The notes under the pieces are model-generated. The model ran no database searches. It saw nothing but the letters and a program-made list of their open reading frames with translations, and was not told the DNA's origin. A stretch of DNA of 32,517 nucleotides from Oscillospiraceae bacterium (lineage in GTDB: Bacteria; Bacillota; Clostridia; Oscillospirales; Oscillospiraceae). Made by a program: the position numbers and the translations under genes. How positions within the stretch are numbered: the stretch's first letter is position 1; each line of letters starts with the position of its first letter. The DNA lies in assembly GCA_009776905.1 (NCBI GenBank), contig WRMX01000009.1, positions 2,491 to 35,007 of the forward strand. Reading direction: 5' to 3'. This document shows positions 2,185-31,506 of this stretch, in pieces.

Positions 2185-6939
<4,755 letters not shown>

Positions 6940-7008
6940 AAAGAACCTCCAAACTATGACCACTATGCATGCAGATAGACAGCTCTGCATCGAGAGTCAA
7001 CAAATGAC

Positions 7009-17283: not shown

Positions 17284-19770
17284 CTATTTCGCGGGCTTTT
17301 GCGAGGCGACATTCACAGCATCTAGAACCATCTGCGCATAAAGCTCCATGGACGCGGATCCGCCCATATGCACCTTGTCTGCGGCAAGCACGTTGGCCTG
17401 CTCCCCGACGATATAATTCCAATCCGCAATTGTAATGTAGTCATATTGCCACGACAATCCTCTTAGCCACTCGGCGGTCTCCTTCGTAAGTCTACCGTTC
17501 GTATTGTTATTGCCATCGTATGGGGTCACAAAAATCAGCCTGTGGCCGGGTTCCAAAGCTGTCACTATTTTCAGCAACTGCTCCGCATAATCATAATTCG
17601 CGTTCGTCCCCACGGCTATGACAACATATTCGCGAAGCTCCCCTTTGTTCTGCAAGTTCACCATTATGTTTCTGCCCTGCGGCACCGTGCGGCTGACCTC
17701 CGCGTCCACGACGCAGTTCGGAATCGTTCTCGTCATCGCAGACTTTGCCCCAAGCGGCACAGAGTCGCCAATCAGCGTGACCCCCTCCGGCCATTTTCTA
17801 TCCTCCGGCTCCGTGTCACCGCTGTCATCGCCGATATCGTCAGTGGTTGCAGCAGGCGGCGTTGCGCCATCCTCCCCGACGTCCGCGCCCTGCCCCTGTG
17901 CGGTCTGCGTCGCCGAGCCCTGTCCTTGCGCAGTCAGCGTCGTCGAGCCTTGCCCCTGCGCGGTCTGCGCCACCGAGTCCTGCCCCTTCGCGGTCTGCGT
18001 CGCGCCCTGTCCTTGCGCGGTCTGCGTCGCGCCCTGTCCTTGCGCGGTCTGCGTCGCCGAGCCTTGCCCTTGCGCGGTCTGAGCCTGTCCTTGCGCTGTT
18101 GACTGAGGTTGGGCATTATTATTTTGATTACCGCCGTCTGCGCCGTCGCCATTTTCCATTGCGCCTTGCAACGCACCTGCACCATCCGCCGAGCCTTGCA
18201 GCGCACCTGCACCATCCGCCGAGCCTTGCAGCGCACCTGCACCATCCGCCGAGCCTTGCAGCGCGCCTATGCCTTCCTCTGCTGAGCCCTGCTCCGCGCC
18301 AATGCCTTCTTCATCTATCGAGCCTTGCAACGCAGCCTCACCCTGCATCTCGCCTCCGCTCTGAGACGATTCTTCCGAAACCTGCCGCTCTTCGCCTAAT
18401 TCGCTATCCGTACCCTCATGCGACAAAGACTTCAAACTCGCGCTCATCTCATCGGCTCTGCGCCCGTAATCAGCCTTTTGGCTCATCAAAAGCATGTCAT
18501 GCACGTCGCTTGCGACATAGTTCGCGACAAAATCCGCTTCAATGCTCGTTATTGCGGGCGCTTTATAAACGACGAAACCTCCCAAGGCCACTCCCGCAGC
18601 CGTCACGGCTCCGATCGCAGCCAACGCAATACGACGATGTTTCATGCCCTTCCCGCCATTGCCGGCAAACAGTGCCTTTTCGACTATATAAACCATCAAC
18701 GCGGAAAAGCTTATCGAAACCGCAAGCGTCGTAAGCGAAGCGGCAATATGGTTCAATACCACCGCAGAAACGATTATATATATCGGCCAATGGAACAGAT
18801 AGAGGTCATATGACATCTCGGAAGCAATAGTCAGCGCAGCCGGTTCTTTCATTTTCACAGGCGTCAAAATATGCAGCCCGTGCGTGCAATATATCATCAC
18901 GACAGTCAATGCTGATGTTAAAACGAACCCATATTTATAAATGAATAAATCATTAAAATCATACTGCGAAAAAATGAATACAATAACGGCAGCAGAAGCA
19001 ACCGATACGATTATCATTGCAGCGGCTTTTTGCTTTTTATGCTCTGAAAGCAAACGCTTCTTGATAGCTTTATCCTGTTTTGAGTTGATGCCCCATATCG
19101 CGCCTGCGGTGGCTCCTATGAAAAATGGGAATAAACGTGAAAGCGTGTTAAAATAGATATCGTTCAATCCGATTTCCGACACGATCTGCAGGCGCAAAAA
19201 CATATACGATCCAATCGCAACCAAGAGCGATATTGTCAACACCGCACCATTCAAAAATAACAGCCGTTTAGAGCTGTATTTTTTATATATCGCCTTAGAT
19301 ACCGATGACAAAAGCGCGCAAACAATACCCCAGGCAACGTAAAACTGCATCAGTACCGCAAGCGACCACATATGCATGTATAATTGCGGCATCAGCTGCG
19401 CTTCGTAGCTCGACCCGCTGAAAATATTGAACCAATTGGCCGTGAAGCTAAGCGCGGATGCGAGCTGTTTTGCAATGCCGACCGTGAAATCAGGCGATAT
19501 TAACAATGCAAAGGGCAATGTAAACGCGATTGAAAGGTACATCGGCACAAGGATACGCTGCACTCGTCTCTTGAAATACTTAAAAACAGCAAAATCGCCG
19601 TTCTTCCTGACTTCTTCCATTATAAGCGCGGTGATTAGGAATCCCGAAAACGTGAAGAACACATCCACGCCTAAAAATCCGCCCGGCAAAGCGCTGTGGA
19701 AAAGGTGATATCCCAATACGAGAAAGAGCCCGAATGCGCGGACAGAGTCGAACCATTTGATCCTATTCAT
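17284..19770 (-). CDS. OatA-like membrane acyltransferase (acyltransferase-3) with repetitive linker and C-terminal SGNH domain
   Basis: N-terminus 'WFDSVRAFGLFLVLGYHLFHSALPGGFLGVDVFFTFSGFLIT'; C-terminus 'GVTLIGDSVPLGAKSAM ... VVIAVGTNANYD ... AADKVHMGGSASMELYAQM' contains Ser and Asp-x-x-His catalytic blocks; linker of GALQGSADGA and TAQGQG(A/S)TQ repeats. Confidence 0.88.
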   Translation of the reverse strand: MNRIKWFDSVRAFGLFLVLGYHLFHSALPGGFLGVDVFFTFSGFLITALIMEEVRKNGDFAVFKYFKRRVQRILVPMYLSIAFTLPFALLISPDFTVGIAKQLASALSFTANWFNIFSGSSYEAQLMPQLYMHMWSLAVLMQFYVAWGIVCALLSSVSKAIYKKYSSKRLLFLNGAVLTISLLVAIGSYMFLRLQIVSEIGLNDIYFNTLSRLFPFFIGATAGAIWGINSKQDKAIKKRLLSEHKKQKAAAMIIVSVASAAVIVFIFSQYDFNDLFIYKYGFVLTSALTVVMIYCTHGLHILTPVKMKEPAALTIASEMSYDLYLFHWPIYIIVSAVVLNHIAASLTTLAVSISFSALMVYIVEKALFAGNGGKGMKHRRIALAAIGAVTAAGVALGGFVVYKAPAITSIEADFVANYVASDVHDMLLMSQKADYGRRADEMSASLKSLSHEGTDSELGEERQVSEESSQSGGEMQGEAALQGSIDEEGIGAEQGSAEEGIGALQGSADGAGALQGSADGAGALQGSADGAGALQGAMENGDGADGGNQNNNAQPQSTAQGQAQTAQGQGSATQTAQGQGATQTAQGQGATQTAKGQDSVAQTAQGQGSTTLTAQGQGSATQTAQGQGADVGEDGATPPAATTDDIGDDSGDTEPEDRKWPEGVTLIGDSVPLGAKSAMTRTIPNCVVDAEVSRTVPQGRNIMVNLQNKGELREYVVIAVGTNANYDYAEQLLKIVTALEPGHRLIFVTPYDGNNNTNGRLTKETAEWLRGLSWQYDYITIADWNYIVGEQANVLAADKVHMGGSASMELYAQMVLDAVNVASQKPAK
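18171..18260 (-). repeat. Three near-identical 30-bp tandem repeats in the acyltransferase linker (GALQGSADGA)
   Basis: (A/G)CGCACCTGCACCATCCGCCGAGCCTTGCA x3. Confidence 0.92.
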
Positions 19771-20368
19771 ATCTAGCTATCAGCGCCCCCCTTTCCCATA
19801 ATCCGCCCACAATTTCGCCCTCCACCGAGACGAACGTCCCCGAGCCGTCGAACAGTCCCTCGCTGAAACCGCCCTCGTAAGCCCAGCCCTCCGCCGAGAC
19901 AAACGTCCCCGAGCCGTCGAACAATCCCTCGCTGAAGCCGCCCTCGTAAGTCCAGCCCTCCGCCGAGGTGAACGTCCCCGAGCCTTCGAACAATCCCTCG
20001 CTGAAGCCGCCCTCGTAAGTCCAGCCCTCTGCCGAGATGAACGTCCCCGAGCCATTCGGTTTGCCGTTCAAAAAATCTCCGACATATATTGCTTCACCGT
20101 CATCGTCTTTAAATTCTCCGTTCCCGGAAAACCTCCCGCCTTCAAACCGGCCCGAATACGTATATCCGCTCGAAAAATCGATCGTTCCTACTCCATCAAA
20201 AAGCCCATTCTTCAGCTCGCCACTATATATAATTTCACCGAAGAGGTATGCATCAAACTCGACTTGCGCAAGGATAGCCTTATCCGGCAGCAAAATAGCG
20301 TAATACGCAAAAAACGCGATTACGGCAATAAGCAATATTGATATCACAGGGGTCAAAACCTTAGACAT
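19763..20368 (-). CDS. Membrane-anchored MORN-repeat protein
   Basis: ATG 20368: MSKVLTPVISILLIAVIAFFAYYAILL (TM) followed by MORN units 'GTFTSAEGWTYEGGFSEGLFEGS'. Stop overlaps the downstream acyltransferase ATG by 8 nt. Confidence 0.85.
   Translation of the reverse strand: MSKVLTPVISILLIAVIAFFAYYAILLPDKAILAQVEFDAYLFGEIIYSGELKNGLFDGVGTIDFSSGYTYSGRFEGGRFSGNGEFKDDDGEAIYVGDFLNGKPNGSGTFISAEGWTYEGGFSEGLFEGSGTFTSAEGWTYEGGFSEGLFDGSGTFVSAEGWAYEGGFSEGLFDGSGTFVSVEGEIVGGLWERGALIARYE
19832..20038 (-). repeat. 69-bp x 3 near-identical tandem repeats encoding MORN units (23 aa)
   Basis: Units 19832-19900, 19901-19969, 19970-20038 begin '(G/A)AACGTCCCCGAGCC' and differ at a few positions only. Confidence 0.9.
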
Positions 20369-20509
20369 CAGATTATGATAGACCTCCGATTTTCTTCGTA
20401 ACTGTTTGGGACGAGCCGGGCATCGCCCCCGCACGCGCCTGCATCATTCAAGGCCTACAACGCGGCAGCGCAGGATGGAGCCGGGCATCGCCCCCTCCGC
20501 GCGCCAGCA

Positions 20510-24029: not shown

Positions 24030-26039
24030 ATGAATAAAAGAAAGCTACTCGCCCTGCTGCTCTCGGCAATGATCCTCATCAGCATCCTCGCAGCCTGCGG
24101 AGGCACGGAAACCAAAAACGAATCTCCACCCCCGCTAGAAAACAACGCCACAGACAGCACGGACACCACGGACACCACCCCGCCCGCGACTAACACATCG
24201 CCGCAACAGCCCGGCGGACAACAGCCCGGTGGACAACAAACTGAGGAAACCGACAATGCGCCGCCGTCCACTGACAATTCCGGAGCTCCCGCGAATATCA
24301 ACTCCAAAGTCCCGCGCGACACATTCATAGTCGGGACGCCCGCCATGAACGGCGACTTCATCCCCGGCTTTGGTAACAGCGCATACGACAAGTCCATCAA
24401 AGTCCTCACTAACGGGTTCTACGAGACGTATTGGGAAACCCCCGACGGCCAGCTCGCTCTCAACCCCACGGTCGTCAAGGACGAGCAGATATCTTTCGAC
24501 GCTGATGGCAACAAAACCTACACATTCACCATCTGGGACGATCTGAAATGGAACAATGGCGAGACTATATACGCTAAAGATTATGTCGCGACGTATCTGT
24601 TCTTCGATTCTCCCGAATATGCCGCCGTCGGCGCCGTGTTCGAGTTGGAAGGCATCATCGGAACATTTGAATATCTCGAAGGCGATGCGGAATATTATGC
24701 CGGCGTCAAGCTCATCGATGACTTCACATTCTCCCTGACTGTCTCCGCTGATGAGCTCCCGTATTTCTGGGAATCGGCCTTCGTCACGACAGCCCCCTAC
24801 GGCCCCATCTGCCTTAAAACTTACTCCCCCGGCAATGACATTATCTCAGACGAGAACGGCTCGCGCTTCGTCAACGACATTGCGGCCGACTGCGAACGCA
24901 TTGCTGCCGGAGAGCGCTATGCCCCCACTGTGACATGCGGTCCGTATAAATTCATCAGCTTCGACGGCTCGACGGTCACGATGCAGCGCAATCAATTCTA
25001 TAAGTCCGACCAGACCGGCAACAAGCCCGTGTTCGAGTGGGTCATCCAAAAGGAAGTTCCCACGGAGACCGACGTTGACATGGTGCTCAGCGGCGACATC
25101 GACTTTCGTGCCGGAAACGTTGAGGGTAATAAGATTGAAGCAGCCATTGCAAGCGAGAATGGTTCATACACCACTTATCTGCGAGCCGGATATGGCTTGC
25201 TTGCGTTCGCGTGCAACTTCGGCCCGACTGCCGACGTCAATGTCCGTTGGGCAATCGCCAGCATCATCGACCGCAACACGATCATCAACAACGTCCTTGG
25301 CGGATATGGCGGAACAGTCGATGCTTCTTATGGCATGGCGCAGTGGACGTATCAGCTTAAACGCAGAGAGATTGCCGCGCAGCTCACCCCCATTGCGTTC
25401 AACCTCGACAAAGCCAATGACCTGCTCGATTTGTCCGATTATAAGTATGAAGCCGATGGCACGACCCCCTTCGACCGCACGAAAGCCGGCCCCGATGGCT
25501 CATACATGCGGTATAACAGCAACGGCGAGATGTTGGTCATCCACCACCTGAGCGCCTCCCCGACAGTCGGCGGCGCCATCGAGAGCGAGACAATCAAAAA
25601 CGCTCCGCTCGTCGGCATGAAATATGAAGTCACCCACGGCGAGTTCAACGATTTGCTCAACAACTACTATTACGGAGCCGACATGGGCGACGACCAATAT
25701 TTCCATTCGTTCAACCTCGCGGTTGACTTCACTTCTGTGGACGATAAATACTGGAGTTCCCACTCCGATGTCGCAAACACATGGATGAACCCCACCCCGA
25801 TCATCGACGACGAGATCGACAGGCTCACGGAGGAGATGCGCCGCCTCGATGGTTCGGAAACCGAGAAGTATGCCGACCTTTGGCTGCAATACCAGGTACG
25901 TTGGCAGCAAATCCTCCCGCAACTCCCGCTCTATTCAAACCAATACTACGATATTTATAACACTGTCGTTGTAGACGTTCCGACTTCGCCATACGCGAAT
26001 TATGACAACGTGATCTGCCAGATCACAAAGTGGCCGTAA
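24030..26039 (+). CDS. Oligopeptide/dipeptide ABC transporter substrate-binding lipoprotein (SBP_bac_5 type)
   Basis: AGGAGG then ATG 24030: MNKRKLLALLLSAMILISILAACGG (lipobox), Pro/Gln/Thr-rich linker, then 'DAD.NKTYTFTIWDDLKWNNGETIYAKDYVATYLF'. Listed start 23943 lies upstream of the promoter. Confidence 0.92.
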   Translation: MNKRKLLALLLSAMILISILAACGGTETKNESPPPLENNATDSTDTTDTTPPATNTSPQQPGGQQPGGQQTEETDNAPPSTDNSGAPANINSKVPRDTFIVGTPAMNGDFIPGFGNSAYDKSIKVLTNGFYETYWETPDGQLALNPTVVKDEQISFDADGNKTYTFTIWDDLKWNNGETIYAKDYVATYLFFDSPEYAAVGAVFELEGIIGTFEYLEGDAEYYAGVKLIDDFTFSLTVSADELPYFWESAFVTTAPYGPICLKTYSPGNDIISDENGSRFVNDIAADCERIAAGERYAPTVTCGPYKFISFDGSTVTMQRNQFYKSDQTGNKPVFEWVIQKEVPTETDVDMVLSGDIDFRAGNVEGNKIEAAIASENGSYTTYLRAGYGLLAFACNFGPTADVNVRWAIASIIDRNTIINNVLGGYGGTVDASYGMAQWTYQLKRREIAAQLTPIAFNLDKANDLLDLSDYKYEADGTTPFDRTKAGPDGSYMRYNSNGEMLVIHHLSASPTVGGAIESETIKNAPLVGMKYEVTHGEFNDLLNNYYYGADMGDDQYFHSFNLAVDFTSVDDKYWSSHSDVANTWMNPTPIIDDEIDRLTEEMRRLDGSETEKYADLWLQYQVRWQQILPQLPLYSNQYYDIYNTVVVDVPTSPYANYDNVICQITKWP

Positions 26040-26201: not shown

Positions 26202-27176
26202 ATGTTCAGATACATAGTAAAGCGTATATTGATACTTATCCCGGTAATCATCTGCATATCCATCATATTATTCGCCATTGGCAAAGCGATGCCCGGAGAC
26301 CCTGTTCGCGCGATGCTGCCGCCGACGTTAAAACCCGATCTCTATGAGATCGCATACGCCAACACCTACGAGCGCCTCGGACTCGATAAATCGTTGCCTG
26401 AGCAGTATTTCCGATGGATATATAACATAATCCTCAAAGGCGACCTCGGCTGGTCGACGATGAACAACCGCCCGGTTGCCGATGCCGTGCAGATCCCCCT
26501 CAGAAACACCATAATGCTCAACATTTTCGTCAACATATTATACCTTGCTATCGCCCTGCCCGTTGGCATAAAAATGGCGACAAAGCGGGGTTCTTTGTTT
26601 GACAACGCATTTCAGGTCGGCTCGCTGATAACCTGGTCGGTGCCGACATTCTTCCTCGCGCTCGTCCTTGTCTTTTTCTTCAGCGTAAAACTCGGCTGGC
26701 TGCCGATGGGCGGCATGCCGGACACATACATGCTGGGAGCATTCGATTCCTTTGTCCAATGGGTGAGGTTTCTTATCTTGCCCGTGATTACGCTCACGAT
26801 CGTCAGCCTCGCCGGCGCCCTTAGATATATTCGCAACGCAATGATCGACGCATTGTCCCAGGACTATATCCGCACGGCGCGATCAAAAGGTCTGGGGGAA
26901 AAAGTGGTCATATATTCGCATGCTTTGAGAAACGCGATGATCCCGATTTCCACAATAATCGTTTCGACATTGTTCTCCCTCTTCACGGGCGCAGCGCTCA
27001 CGGAGTCCGTTTTCGCCTACAACGGCATCGGCAGGCTGCTCCTGCGCGCGGTCTACCAACGGGACACCATGCTCATCGTCACGATGAACCTGTTTTTTGC
27101 GCTCATAAGCATCATCTCCGTGCTGGTCTCGGACGTCATATATGGCCTCGCGGATCCGCGCATCAAGCTGCGATAG
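26202..27176 (+). CDS. Oligopeptide ABC transporter permease (DppB/OppB type)
   Basis: 'MFRYIVKRILILIPVIICISIILFAIGKAMPGDP', 'QDYIRTARSKGLGEKVVIYSHALRNAMIPI' (EAA loop); SD GGAGG. Confidence 0.95.
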   Translation: MFRYIVKRILILIPVIICISIILFAIGKAMPGDPVRAMLPPTLKPDLYEIAYANTYERLGLDKSLPEQYFRWIYNIILKGDLGWSTMNNRPVADAVQIPLRNTIMLNIFVNILYLAIALPVGIKMATKRGSLFDNAFQVGSLITWSVPTFFLALVLVFFFSVKLGWLPMGGMPDTYMLGAFDSFVQWVRFLILPVITLTIVSLAGALRYIRNAMIDALSQDYIRTARSKGLGEKVVIYSHALRNAMIPISTIIVSTLFSLFTGAALTESVFAYNGIGRLLLRAVYQRDTMLIVTMNLFFALISIISVLVSDVIYGLADPRIKLR

Positions 27177-27190
27177 GGGGGGGTGGAGAT

Positions 27191-29083
27191 ATGGCAAAAA
27201 ACAGCAACGGGGCAAACAAGGTCGGGCGTTCATTCGGCTCGATGTTCAAGCGTTTGTTCGTGCGTGATAAAAGCGCTGTAAACATACTTGAAGAAGAAGC
27301 GCTCAGGACTCCCGGCAAGACAATATTATTGAATCTCTTGCATAATAAGCTCGCGATCATCGGCTTCTGCGGCTTTGTCGTGATAATACTCTTCTGTTTC
27401 GTGGGCTCCGCCATCAACCCTCTGACAGAGACATACAGCGAGTTCACCAACGCGAACCTCCGCCCGGGGATCAACTATCTGAAATATCCAAAGGATCTTG
27501 GCGATAAAAACATCATAAAGATCGTATCCGGCGTGTCGTTCAGCATCGCGCTCGACGACCGGGGCGACTTATATATATGGGGCACGGAATGCAACCTTTT
27601 GCAAGCGGGCGTCTCCGACCCTATATTGAAAATCCCCGATGAGGTCAAAAATGCCCGCATCGTGGACATTGAGAGCGGGGGCGCGCACATAATCGCCCGC
27701 GACGATCAAGGCTATTTCTATGCATGGGGCCATTATGGGCATGGGCAGACGCGCATTCCGGATGACATCATGCAACAAATGTATGAAGAGAACCTCTCCT
27801 CAATAGTTAAAATGGCCGCAATGACGCGCTGGACAGCCCTTCTCGGAGACAATGGCTATGTATACTTATGGGGCAGCTTGCAGTCCGAAACAATTTTCAA
27901 CACCGGAATATATGCGACGACGGGCGTCATAGACATGGCTGCCGGCGACAACAACATGGTGCTCCTCCATCGCGACGGGACTGTTTCCGTCGTCGGCCAG
28001 TCCGGGACGGAGGTCATCACCCAGGTTCCGCCGGAATTGCAGGATGGTTCCGTCCGCGTGGTGTCCATCGCCGCGACAAACCGCAACGCGCTCGCCTTGG
28101 ACGACACGGGGAAGCTGTGGCTCTGGGGCAGCACGGAATATAGGCTCAATAACATGCCTGAAATCAAAGGCACGCCCATGGAGATCGCCGGCGGTTACAA
28201 AAACCTCGTCGTCCTTACTGACGCAGGGGAAATCATCGTATGGGGTTCAAATGAACTCAATCAGCTCAAGCTCCCGAAAAGCCTCTCCGGCCCCACGACG
28301 AGCGCCAAGCACATCTTTGCGGATTATCACCAATTCTATGCCACCGACGCCAATGGAAAAATCCTCGGTGCCTGGGGCAACAAAGGATATCTGTGGGGCA
28401 GCGATCAATTCGGCCGCGATATCTTCACGCGCACGATGCACGGCGGCAAGATTTCGCTGACGGTCGGTATTTGGGCCGTCATCATCTCTACTGTCATCGC
28501 AATCGTAGTCGGTTTAACAAGCGGATACTTGGGCGGGTGGATCGACCAAGGCCTGATGCGCCTGACCGATATATTCAGCGCTCTCCCCTTCCTCCCCATC
28601 GTCGTCACTCTCAATTACGTCATTGGGCAGAGCATTTCGTCGGCAAATCGCGTAAACTTGTTGATGATCCTTCTCGGCGTTTTGGGCTGGATGGGCCTTG
28701 CGCGGCTCATACGCGCGCAGCTGCTGCTCGAACGCGAAAAGGACTTTGTGCTCGCGGCGCGTTCGCTCGGGATCAAGCAGCGCGGCATCATGCTGCGCCA
28801 CATCCTCCCCAATGTCGTCAATTTCGTAATCGTCAGCGTCACGCTGAATTACGCCAGTTTCATATTGTCGGAAGCCGTTTTCAGTTTCCTCGGTTTCGGC
28901 GTCCCAGAGCCAAAGCCCTCCTGGGGCAATATGCTCAACAGCGCGATGGAGTCGGCTGTCATCCAGTTCTACTGGTGGCGGTGGATCATCCCCGCGCTCT
29001 TTGTCGTGGCGGCTGCTTTCTCCATAAACCTCGTCAGCGACGGTTTGCGCGAGGCTATGGACCCAAAAGCGAATGAGAGGTGA
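27191..29083 (+). CDS. Oligopeptide ABC transporter permease (DppC/OppC type) with an inserted seven-repeat RCC1-like beta-propeller
   Basis: TM1 'LAIIGFCGFVVIILFCFVGSAINPL'; RCC1-like repeats about aa 106-398; then 'LWGSDQFGRDIFTRTMHGGKISLTVG' and the remaining DppC TMs with EAA loop 'KDFVLAARSLGIKQRGIMLRHILPNV'. One uninterrupted ORF. Confidence 0.95.
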   Translation: MAKNSNGANKVGRSFGSMFKRLFVRDKSAVNILEEEALRTPGKTILLNLLHNKLAIIGFCGFVVIILFCFVGSAINPLTETYSEFTNANLRPGINYLKYPKDLGDKNIIKIVSGVSFSIALDDRGDLYIWGTECNLLQAGVSDPILKIPDEVKNARIVDIESGGAHIIARDDQGYFYAWGHYGHGQTRIPDDIMQQMYEENLSSIVKMAAMTRWTALLGDNGYVYLWGSLQSETIFNTGIYATTGVIDMAAGDNNMVLLHRDGTVSVVGQSGTEVITQVPPELQDGSVRVVSIAATNRNALALDDTGKLWLWGSTEYRLNNMPEIKGTPMEIAGGYKNLVVLTDAGEIIVWGSNELNQLKLPKSLSGPTTSAKHIFADYHQFYATDANGKILGAWGNKGYLWGSDQFGRDIFTRTMHGGKISLTVGIWAVIISTVIAIVVGLTSGYLGGWIDQGLMRLTDIFSALPFLPIVVTLNYVIGQSISSANRVNLLMILLGVLGWMGLARLIRAQLLLEREKDFVLAARSLGIKQRGIMLRHILPNVVNFVIVSVTLNYASFILSEAVFSFLGFGVPEPKPSWGNMLNSAMESAVIQFYWWRWIIPALFVVAAAFSINLVSDGLREAMDPKANER

Positions 29084-29093
29084 GGGCACGAAT

Positions 29094-30086
29094 ATGAAAA
29101 TGTTGGAAATACGCGACCTCCATACTTATTTCGATACAAAGCGCGGCCTTATCCGCGCCGTTGACGGCGTCAGCCTCAGCCTGGAAGAGGGGCGCACGCT
29201 CGGCGTCGTTGGCGAATCCGGGAGCGGCAAGAGCCAGACCGCCCTCTCCATACTCAAGCTATTCGAAGATAACCAACGCATCCACCAAGGTGAGATATAT
29301 TTTGACGGCGACAAAATCAGCGAGCTCGACGCGGAGGCTATGTTCAAAATCAGGGGTAACAAAATCTCCATGATTTTCCAGGAACCCATGACATCGCTCA
29401 ATCCGGTCTTCACAGTCAGCAAGCAAATCAGCGAGGTCCTCATCTTGCACCAAGGCATGTCAAAAAAGCAGGCACACGCGCGCGCCGTGGAAATGCTCGA
29501 AGCGGTCAAGATTCCGAATGCAAGCAAAATGGCAAGCCAATACCCGCACCAGCTCTCCGGCGGCATGCGGCAGCGCGTCATGATCGCAATGGCGCTTGCA
29601 TGCAATCCAAAACTGCTAATCGCCGACGAGCCCACGACCGCGCTGGACGTCACCATTCAAGCGCAGATTCTGCGCCTGATGAACGACCTGAAAAACGAGT
29701 TGAAGACGGCAATAATGTTCATCACCCACGACTTGGGCGTCATTAACCAGATGGCGGACGAGGTAGCTGTCATGTATTGCGGGCAGGTCGTCGAAATCGC
29801 ACCGGTAGACTATATATTCAAACCTATCACAAACTATTCGCATCCATATACGGAAGCGCTTCTGCTGTCGATTCCCTTGCTTTCCGGCGATCGCGGAAAC
29901 AGGCTGGAGGCGATCCCCGGCGCGGTGCCGCACCCTCTCGACCTGCCGCAAGGCTGCCGATTCGCGCCGCGATGTAAATATTCCACCGAGCAATGCAAAA
30001 AAGTGATGCCGGAGCTGAACATGGTCACAGAGGAGCAAGGCGTCCGCTGCTTCTATCCCAAGAAAGGGGTGCGCCACGATGGTTGA
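29094..30086 (+). CDS. Oligopeptide ABC transporter ATP-binding protein (DppD/OppD type)
   Basis: Walker A 'GESGSGKSQ', signature 'LSGGMRQR', Walker B 'LLIADEPTTALD', C-terminal oligo_HPY 'HPYTEALLLSIP ... GCRFAPRCKYS'. ATG 29094 with GAGGTGAGGG upstream preferred. Confidence 0.95.
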   Translation: MKMLEIRDLHTYFDTKRGLIRAVDGVSLSLEEGRTLGVVGESGSGKSQTALSILKLFEDNQRIHQGEIYFDGDKISELDAEAMFKIRGNKISMIFQEPMTSLNPVFTVSKQISEVLILHQGMSKKQAHARAVEMLEAVKIPNASKMASQYPHQLSGGMRQRVMIAMALACNPKLLIADEPTTALDVTIQAQILRLMNDLKNELKTAIMFITHDLGVINQMADEVAVMYCGQVVEIAPVDYIFKPITNYSHPYTEALLLSIPLLSGDRGNRLEAIPGAVPHPLDLPQGCRFAPRCKYSTEQCKKVMPELNMVTEEQGVRCFYPKKGVRHDG

Positions 30087-31506
30087 CACAAACAAAGCGC
30101 TGCTCAGCGTCAATAATGTCAAGATGCATTTCCCGCTTAAAAAAGACCGCTTCTTCCAAAAAGAGATATCATATGTGAAAGCCGTGGACGGCGTGACTCT
30201 CGATATATATGAGGGCGAAACGTTCGGGCTCGTCGGCGAAAGCGGCTGCGGAAAATCCACGCTCGGCCGTATATTGCTCCAGCTCTATACTCAAACATCG
30301 GGTACGGTGCGCTACAACGGCTCCACTCTCAACGATTTTGCTCCCGCATACTCGTTTAAAGATGCCTCCGGCATCGCTGCGGTCAATGGAACTCCTGATG
30401 AGATATTGATGAACTTTCCTCATCAGGCACAGCTCGCAGGCGCTCTGCTGCTTTCAGACGATACTGCGGGGCTCTCGCACCTCCTGCACCAATACCTCGT
30501 TGCTGTCCGGTCTGTCAACGACATTCAGACAAGCCTCCGTTTGTGCGAAATCAAGCACGACGCGCTCGTCAGCAGCAAAAATCTATCTGCTACGGAGCAA
30601 AGGCGACTTAAAAAACTGAAAGCAGCCATGATTGAGCAAAATGATGAGTTGCAAAAAGCACAGCAATCACGTGATAAATATATTATGGAGCTGGAAAAAA
30701 TGCGGGCCGCCTGCTCGGATAAACCGGGGTATGAACTGCTGGAAGCTGCGCGCGATGCTTCAATCGACCTCAGCAGGCTCACAAAGGAGGAAATGCGCCG
30801 CCAGCGTCGCTATCTCCAGGTCATTTTCCAAGACCCTTATTCCTCGCTCAATGCCCGTTTCTCCGTCGGCCAGATAATCAGCGAATCATTGGTCGCGCAC
30901 AAAATATTCGGCCGAGGGTCGCGCCAGCTTGAGGAATATACGTTGAACATCATGGAGAAATGCGGTTTGCAGCATTATTTTCTGCATCGCTATCCCCACC
31001 AATTCTCCGGCGGCCAGCGGCAGCGCATCGGCATCGCCCGTGCATTGGCGCCACAGCCGAAATTTGTCGTCTGCGATGAAGCGGTCAGCGCGCTGGATGT
31101 GTCGATACAGTCTCAAATCATCAACTTGCTGCTGGATTTAAAAGAGAGCTCAAATCTGACTTATCTGTTTATCTCCCATGATCTCAGCACCGTCAAGTTT
31201 ATCAGCGACCGCGTCGCCGTCATGTATTTGGGCAATATTGTAGAGCTTGGCGATTCCGACAAGATTTTTTCGGAGCCGCTGCATCCATATACAAATGTCC
31301 TCCTGGAGGCGATCCCAACGACGGAGGAAGCGTCGCAGAAGGAGTTGCAAGTCATTGAAGGGGATGTGCCGAGCCCGATCAATCCGCCGCCCGGTTGCAA
31401 GTTCCATACGCGGTGCAGGTATGTCACGGACGTTTGCAAAAGTGAGCCGCCGGAGTTTCGCGAGCTGCGCCCGCGCCACTGGGTCGCCTGCCACTTCCCC
31501 CGTTAG
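30079..31506 (+). CDS. Oligopeptide ABC transporter ATP-binding protein (DppF/OppF type) with a ~150-aa insertion
   Basis: Walker A 'GESGCGKST' and signature 'FSGGQRQR', Walker B 'FVVCDEAVSALD', but a non-canonical segment of about aa 82-232 precedes 'RRYLQVIFQDPYSSLN'. Overlaps the DppD stop by 8 nt. Confidence 0.93.
   Translation: MVDTNKALLSVNNVKMHFPLKKDRFFQKEISYVKAVDGVTLDIYEGETFGLVGESGCGKSTLGRILLQLYTQTSGTVRYNGSTLNDFAPAYSFKDASGIAAVNGTPDEILMNFPHQAQLAGALLLSDDTAGLSHLLHQYLVAVRSVNDIQTSLRLCEIKHDALVSSKNLSATEQRRLKKLKAAMIEQNDELQKAQQSRDKYIMELEKMRAACSDKPGYELLEAARDASIDLSRLTKEEMRRQRRYLQVIFQDPYSSLNARFSVGQIISESLVAHKIFGRGSRQLEEYTLNIMEKCGLQHYFLHRYPHQFSGGQRQRIGIARALAPQPKFVVCDEAVSALDVSIQSQIINLLLDLKESSNLTYLFISHDLSTVKFISDRVAVMYLGNIVELGDSDKIFSEPLHPYTNVLLEAIPTTEEASQKELQVIEGDVPSPINPPPGCKFHTRCRYVTDVCKSEPPEFRELRPRHWVACHFPR

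What the first reader, a model, noticed from the sequence alone, without database searches (positions are those of the whole stretch)
27506..28384. Complete seven-repeat RCC1-like beta-propeller inserted in a DppC/OppC-type ABC permease
Seen directly: one continuous 630-aa ORF starts as a normal DppC (cytosolic N-terminus, TM1, 'INPLT'), then has seven units of the form '(I/M)xxGxxxxxAL.DxGxLYxWG' (IVSGVSFSIALDDRGDLYIWG; IESGGAHIIARDDQGYFYAWG; MAAMTRWTALLGDNGYVYLWG; MAAGDNNMVLLHRDGTVSVVG; IAATNRNALALDDTGKLWLWG; IAGGYKNLVVLTDAGEIIVWG; IFADYHQFYATDANGKILGAWG), then resumes exactly at the conserved 'GxDxxGRDxxxR' motif and the remaining TMs. Established: RCC1-type repeats form seven-bladed propellers, and the TM1-TM2 region of DppC proteins faces outside. 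Inference: an entire extracytoplasmic propeller is built into the translocator, perhaps as a docking or gating site for the substrate-binding protein, peptide or cell wall. I do not know of a described oligopeptide importer with this architecture.
Basis: partly seen in the sequence, partly recalled or inferred. Interest (0 to 1): 0.88.

Follow-up and report, generated by a model that had tools for sequence, protein, structure and literature searches.

The report
Peptide importer with built-in propeller
One membrane subunit of a bacterial peptide importer carries a complete seven-bladed propeller domain on its outer face; the same design recurs in about 50 sampled Bacillota species, so it is a real, old and apparently undescribed variant of a well-known transporter, probably a docking site for the importer's binding protein.

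Summary
ORF 27191-29083 is one 630-aa OppC/DppC-type permease with a complete seven-bladed RCC1-type propeller (residues about 101-397) in the loop between TM1 and TM2. Profile searches, an AlphaFold model (seven three-stranded blades) and Foldseek (best match BLIP-II, TM-score 0.80 over the target) agree. It is not a chimera: about 51 sampled genomes from several classes of Bacillota carry the same insert at the same point. On a tree that leaves the insert out, all 49 propeller permeases form one branch (100/100), with no loss seen. The setting is always SBP-B-C-D-F. The window's genome has 13 other OppC-type permeases, all of ordinary size. The DppF gene of the same operon usually carries a second, helical insert that tracks the propeller. 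DppF is the partner of DppC in E. coli, so both extra modules would sit on one half of the transporter. Most likely function (inferred): an extracytoplasmic docking domain for the cognate binding protein, analogous to MalF-P2. The propeller's divergence follows the SBP's more closely than other parts of the operon do, which is modest support. I found no paper describing this architecture. It is a new variant of a known kind; mechanism untested.

The parts
24030..26039 (+). Substrate-binding lipoprotein (family 5 SBP, OppA/Opp4A-like); likely start ATG at 24030, lipobox ILAAC; the ORF as listed runs from 23943
   Evidence: Pfam SBP_bac_5 E 3.5e-30; PDB 9p48 OppA E 7e-31; start and lipobox read from the sequence
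26202..27176 (+). DppB/OppB-type permease, ordinary size (324 aa)
   Evidence: BPD_transp_1 and BPD_transp_1_N; best NCBIfam Opp4B
27191..29083 (+). DppC/OppC-type permease with inserted propeller (630 aa)
27191..27466 (+). DppC N-terminus, TM1 (about residues 54-76) and start of the TM1-TM2 loop, up to P92
   Evidence: OppC_N 40-92; hydropathy; boundary alignment
27491..28381 (+). Seven-bladed RCC1/BLIP-II-type propeller, residues 101-397 (strands 108-396), between 'N-L-x-P' and 'WGxKGYxxGTDxxGRD'
28385..29083 (+). DppC core: G-S/T-D-xx-G-R-D motif and TM2-TM6
   Evidence: BPD_transp_1 437-627; PDB OppC/DppC chains 8z21, 8z1v, 8j5q match from residue 392-397 on
29073..30086 (+). DppD/OppD-type ATPase (337 aa)
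   Evidence: ABC_tran, oligo_HPY
30079..31506 (+). DppF/OppF-type ATPase (475 aa) with an internal insert
   Evidence: ABC_tran, oligo_HPY; spacing Walker A to Q loop 195 residues
30319..30747 (+). Helical insert in DppF (residues about 81-223), homologous across propeller operons (conserved P-x-Y and G-G positions)
   Evidence: AF2 single-sequence model helical but of low confidence

Best explanation
This is the C subunit of an oligopeptide-type ABC importer (SBP-B-C-D-F) in which a BLIP-II-like seven-bladed RCC1 propeller has been inserted once, long ago, into the extracytoplasmic TM1-TM2 loop, and then kept. Shown: sequence, fold by prediction, insertion point, single origin, retention, operon context. 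Inferred: the propeller stands beside the mouth of the translocation pathway, where the binding protein lands, and holds or orients the cognate lipoprotein SBP on the translocator, as the MalF-P2 domain does for MalE. The transported substrate is probably oligopeptides. The helical insert in DppF, the ATPase that pairs with DppC, is a second module of the same half-transporter, of unknown task.
For: RCC1 profiles and PDB matches; AF2 propeller with pLDDT mostly 70-90 in residues 100-400 and Foldseek top hit BLIP-II, E 1e-17, TMt 0.80. BLIP-II is a seven-bladed propeller with three-stranded blades and a protein binder (PMC6121496). 49 propeller permeases form one branch 100/100 with a single change on a tree without the insert columns. 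The SBP-B-C-D-F order holds in all 46 operons read, where the contig reaches. Divergence of the propeller follows that of the SBP after removing the other subunits: partial r 0.44, against 0.19 for the DppF insert and 0.08 for the DppC N-terminus/TM1; 0.54-0.56 with linear controls, while propeller against DppB gives -0.03. In E. coli Dpp the SBP caps DppB and DppC, and the TM1-TM2 regions are periplasmic (PMC12136057). MalF-P2 precedent (PMC3150292). An M3 oligoendopeptidase lies next to 11 of 46 operons, though one of 10 plain operons has it too.
Against: No structure of the complex and no experiment. The co-divergence test does not fully correct for shared ancestry and for saturation of two fast-evolving outer proteins. 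Ordinary Opp systems dock their SBP without such a domain.
Confidence: 0.5

Rival explanations
1. The propeller binds the substrate itself (peptides or glycopeptides) or another outer ligand, as a fixed second receptor or selectivity filter on the translocator, while the SBP docks in the usual way.
For: The propeller varies about as much as the SBP (median pairwise identity 0.33 and 0.35, against 0.50 for the permease core), as expected of a ligand-reading part; propeller centres and faces are common binding sites (general knowledge). Blade 7 keeps a non-standard motif Q-N-Y (window Q381-F382-Y383) in most members.
Against: No known peptide-binding RCC1 propeller of this kind was found; the E1-E2 and E2-E3 loops are about equally conserved (mean entropy 1.88 and 1.91), so no one face stands out as a conserved pocket.
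Confidence: 0.2
2. The propeller docks the importer to some other outer-surface protein or to the cell wall, for example a peptidase or a sensor, so that peptides are released near the importer.
For: BLIP-II, the closest fold match, binds its target protein with picomolar affinity (PMC6121496). An M3 peptidase gene is next to about a quarter of the operons.
Against: M3 peptidases are cytoplasmic as a rule (general knowledge); no other gene recurs near the operon. Co-divergence points to the SBP.
Confidence: 0.15
3. The insert is a passive passenger: a domain acquired in a tolerant loop, folded but without a task in transport.
For: The TM1-TM2 loop of OppC tolerates other inserts: L030/L031/L050 carry an unrelated stretch of about 240 residues there.
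Against: No loss among 49 permeases spread over several classes, seven complete blades with conserved W-G and other positions, linked with a second insert in DppF.
Confidence: 0.08
4. The insert is an assembly chimera or frame artefact.
For: None beyond the unusual architecture.
Against: Same insertion point and homologous propeller in independent genomes, including two public Erysipelotrichaceae MAGs and an Oscillospiraceae MAG; GC content continuous across the insert.
Confidence: 0.01

Closest known systems
Oligopeptide/dipeptide ABC importers, C subunit (OppC/DppC; NCBIfam Opp4C best; PDB 8z21, 8z1v, 8j5q, 8wd9)
   Same: TM1 with OppC_N, GTDxxGRD motif, BPD_transp_1 with TM2-TM6, operon SBP-B-C-D-F
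   Different: About 300 extra residues forming a propeller between TM1 and TM2; Opp4C score 294 against a cut-off of 350
BLIP-II (beta-lactamase inhibitory protein II) and RCC1/BLIP-II-type propellers (RCC1, UVR8, HERC2)
   Same: Seven blades, three strands per blade as in BLIP-II, RCC1-type repeats ending in WG
   Different: BLIP-II is a free secreted protein and the others are soluble eukaryotic proteins or parts of them; here the propeller is inserted in a membrane transporter subunit
MalF P2 domain of the enterobacterial maltose importer
   Same: A large extracytoplasmic domain inserted in one TMD of a type I importer; contacts the binding protein (PMC3150292)
   Different: Other fold, other loop and other transporter family; works-like comparison only, contact with the SBP not shown here
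DppB scoop motif (E. coli DppABCDF)
   Same: Element of a TM1-TM2 loop that contacts the SBP (PMC12136057)
   Different: A short motif in the B subunit, not a 300-residue domain in the C subunit

Membership tests
OppC/DppC permease | OppC_N domain followed by BPD_transp_1 above curated cut-offs | tested here: met
   28.5 against 23.9 bits and 101.3 against 26.4 bits
OppC/DppC permease | (L/M)GTDxxGRD motif before TM2 | tested here: met
   WGSDQFGRD in the window; conserved in all propeller permeases apart from A or K at the Arg in a few
OppC/DppC permease | Short TM1-TM2 loop as in plain members | tested here: not met
   Motif at residue 402 here against 74-90 in most plain relatives. This defines a variant; it does not exclude the protein from the family
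NCBIfam Opp4C equivalog (NF045476) | Score at or above the curated cut-off of 350 bits | tested here: not met
   294.2 bits
Type I ABC peptide importer (SBP + 2 TMD + 2 NBD) | One operon with SBP_bac_5, OppB, OppC, OppD, OppF with oligo_HPY | tested here: met
Type I ABC peptide importer (SBP + 2 TMD + 2 NBD) | Uptake of peptides | not testable with these tools
   Inferred from families; M3 oligoendopeptidase neighbour in 11 of 46 loci
RCC1/BLIP-II propeller | RCC1 repeats above the curated cut-off | tested here: met
   RCC1_2 74.9 bits against cut-off 22; WD40_RLD stays below its own cut-off (119.7 against 150)
RCC1/BLIP-II propeller | Seven blades closing a ring; in BLIP-II three strands per blade | tested here: met
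   AF2 model and Foldseek, a prediction rather than a solved structure; BLIP-II description PMC6121496
RCC1/BLIP-II propeller | Beta-lactamase inhibition (BLIP-II) or Ran exchange (RCC1) | not testable with these tools
   No reason to expect either here
MalF-P2-like docking domain (works like) | Extracytoplasmic location of the inserted domain | tested here: inconclusive
   By homology to DppC TM1-TM2 (PMC12136057) and charge/hydropathy; no topology experiment
MalF-P2-like docking domain (works like) | Physical contact with the SBP during transport | not testable with these tools
   Only indirect: co-divergence partial r 0.44

The most novel reading that the evidence does not exclude
A distinct class of peptide importers in which one half-transporter (C-F) has gained two coupled modules, an outer propeller that captures the binding protein or its cargo and an inner helical hairpin on the ATPase, so that loading outside is reported or coupled to a factor inside the cell.
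Probability: 0.15. Interest if true: 0.8.

Novelty: new variant of a known kind. Interest (0 to 1): 0.6.

Why it matters
Oligopeptide importers are among the best-studied bacterial transporters, and their C subunit is thought of as a bare six-helix permease. Here an entire outer domain of a protein-binding fold is built into it, in a lineage spread across Bacillota, together with a second insert in the partner ATPase. If the propeller docks the binding protein, it gives a new, easily tested answer to how an importer selects its own SBP when, as here, a cell has about 14 similar systems.

Tried and rejected
Assembly chimera: rejected by independent genomes. Literature search for an RCC1 propeller in a permease: nothing relevant; the library lacks most subscription papers and preprints. 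Plasmid and phage records: the best plasmid matches cover at most 48% of the protein, the permease core, and the propeller has no phage match. Search of the own genome with Pfam RCC1_2: the control did not ring either, so it says nothing. Conserved face of the propeller: the E1-E2 and E2-E3 loops are equally conserved, no verdict. AF2 of DppF from one sequence: mean pLDDT 36, useful only as a hint of helices. Conserved neighbour genes: only an M3 peptidase in 11 of 46 loci, also beside one of ten plain operons.

Full report
Observation. The ORF 27191-29083 on the + strand codes for 630 aa without a stop. Pfam finds OppC_N at 40-92, five RCC1_2 stretches (E 3e-21 for the whole protein, 1e-24 for the insert alone), an RCC1-like-domain model (E 2e-34, below its own curated cut-off) and BPD_transp_1 at 437-627. 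NCBIfam's best model is Opp4C, 294 bits against a cut-off of 350. By sequence, the permease part matches solved OppC/DppC chains from residue 392-399 on, and the insert matches HERC2, UVR8, RCC1 and BLIP-II. Base composition is continuous across the insert.

Fold. AlphaFold2 with four aligned sequences gives seven groups of three strands between residues 108 and 396, with block pLDDT mostly 70-90 in the propeller and low in the membrane part, where the alignment was too shallow. Foldseek against the PDB puts BLIP-II first (3qhy, E 1e-17, TM-score 0.80 normalised by the target), then UVR8, RCC1, RPGR and HERC. BLIP-II is described as a seven-bladed propeller whose blades have only three strands (PMC6121496), which is what the model shows. 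The consensus of 49 members keeps WG in six of the seven blades and, in several blades, '..gQ..vP' after it.

Boundaries. Plain relatives have a linker of the form 'N-L-P-P-S-x-x-H-x-L-G-T-D-x-x-G-R-D'. The propeller lies between 'N-L-x-P' and 'G-(S/T)-D-x-x-G-R-D', the last blade's WG running into 'KGYxxGTD'. The insert has no hydrophobic stretch (maximum 19-residue mean 1.08), one cysteine and a net negative charge, and TM1 is preceded by a basic N-terminus. In E. coli DppBCDF the TM1-TM2 regions are periplasmic and the binding protein caps DppB and DppC (PMC12136057). The propeller therefore lies outside, by homology rather than by experiment.

Distribution. Close relatives with the whole insert are a 67% identical protein of an Oscillospiraceae MAG and 41-43% identical proteins of two Erysipelotrichaceae MAGs. 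Draws of 301, 392 and 399 genomes from the same family, class and phylum gave about 51 species with the propeller after setting aside the plain permeases among the matches (my count). A tree of the permease without the insert columns puts 49 propeller permeases on one side of a branch with 100/100 support and needs one change. The window's genome has 14 OppC-type permeases; the other 13 have ordinary open frames of 284-349 aa.

Operon. All 46 propeller operons that I could read in context have the order SBP-B-C-D-F, as far as contigs reach. An M3 oligoendopeptidase with HEXGH lies beside 11 of them, ten within 1 kb, which fits oligopeptides as substrate; one of ten plain operons also has it.

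A second insert. DppF in 40 of the 46 operons has about 140-200 extra residues between Walker A and the Q loop (spacing 191-250 against 48-54 in all nine plain relatives read). It is missing in L001 and in the clade L038/L039/L041/L042, and L114's gene is broken by a stop. The inserts are homologous. In one draw of 399 genomes the DppF insert and the propeller each occur in 14 genomes, 13 of them shared. The two odd ones are explained: G1028's DppF lies off the contig, and G870 keeps only D and F, without the SBP, B and C genes. In E. coli Dpp, DppC pairs with DppF (PMC12136057), so both inserts would belong to the same half-transporter. I could not model the DppF insert with confidence.

Mechanism. 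Docking of the cognate binding protein is the explanation I favour (0.5). MalF-P2 shows that a large outer domain of one TMD can hold the binding protein (PMC3150292), and BLIP-II, the closest fold match, is a tight protein binder (PMC6121496). As indirect evidence I compared divergence within 35-41 operons. After removing what the other subunits explain, with linear and squared terms, the propeller follows the SBP with r 0.44 (no permutation of 1000 as high), the DppF insert with 0.19 and the DppC N-terminus/TM1 with 0.08. With linear controls the value is 0.54-0.56, and propeller against DppB gives -0.03. The permutations do not account for shared ancestry, so this is support, not proof. Direct binding of substrate (0.2) or of another outer protein (0.15) is not excluded.

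Novelty. Neither half is new: OppC-type permeases and RCC1/BLIP-II propellers are both well known. Their union in one subunit, its single origin, wide retention and link with a DppF insert were not found in the literature available here. That library is open-access only, and domain databases may already list the combination. I therefore call it a new variant of a known kind.

Noticed in passing
window 30319-30747: Helical insert in the DppF ATPase between Walker A and Q loop, homologous across propeller operons and absent from nine plain relatives; no Pfam match for its middle part
   Followed up: partly
L030 490-2202, L031 490-2202, L050 7340-9052: OppC-type permeases of 571 aa with a different, unrelated insert of about 240 residues at the same TM1-TM2 loop, without a Pfam match
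   Followed up: partly
L069 1495-2916 (-): OppC-type permease of 474 aa with an N-terminal extension that looks like extra membrane helices
   Followed up: no
L137 7221-9756 (-): Orphan DppD-DppF pair, DppF with the insert, without SBP, DppB and DppC, beside BmpA-type transporter genes
   Followed up: partly
L131 (G817:C14:24019-24516): DppF gene interrupted by a TAA in its insert region
   Followed up: no
L034, L035, L039, L041, L042, L092, L093, L104, L105, L107, L111: M3-family oligoendopeptidase gene beside the propeller operon
   Followed up: yes
window 19763-20434 (-): Small protein with MORN-like repeats (YEGGFSEGLF.GSGTF) beside an acyltransferase-like protein with a long low-complexity stretch (17284-19770), read by eye from the ORF list
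   Followed up: no
window 2185-6990 (-): 1601-aa surface-type protein with many repeated units and an LPQTG-like sortase motif at its C-terminus, by eye
   Followed up: no
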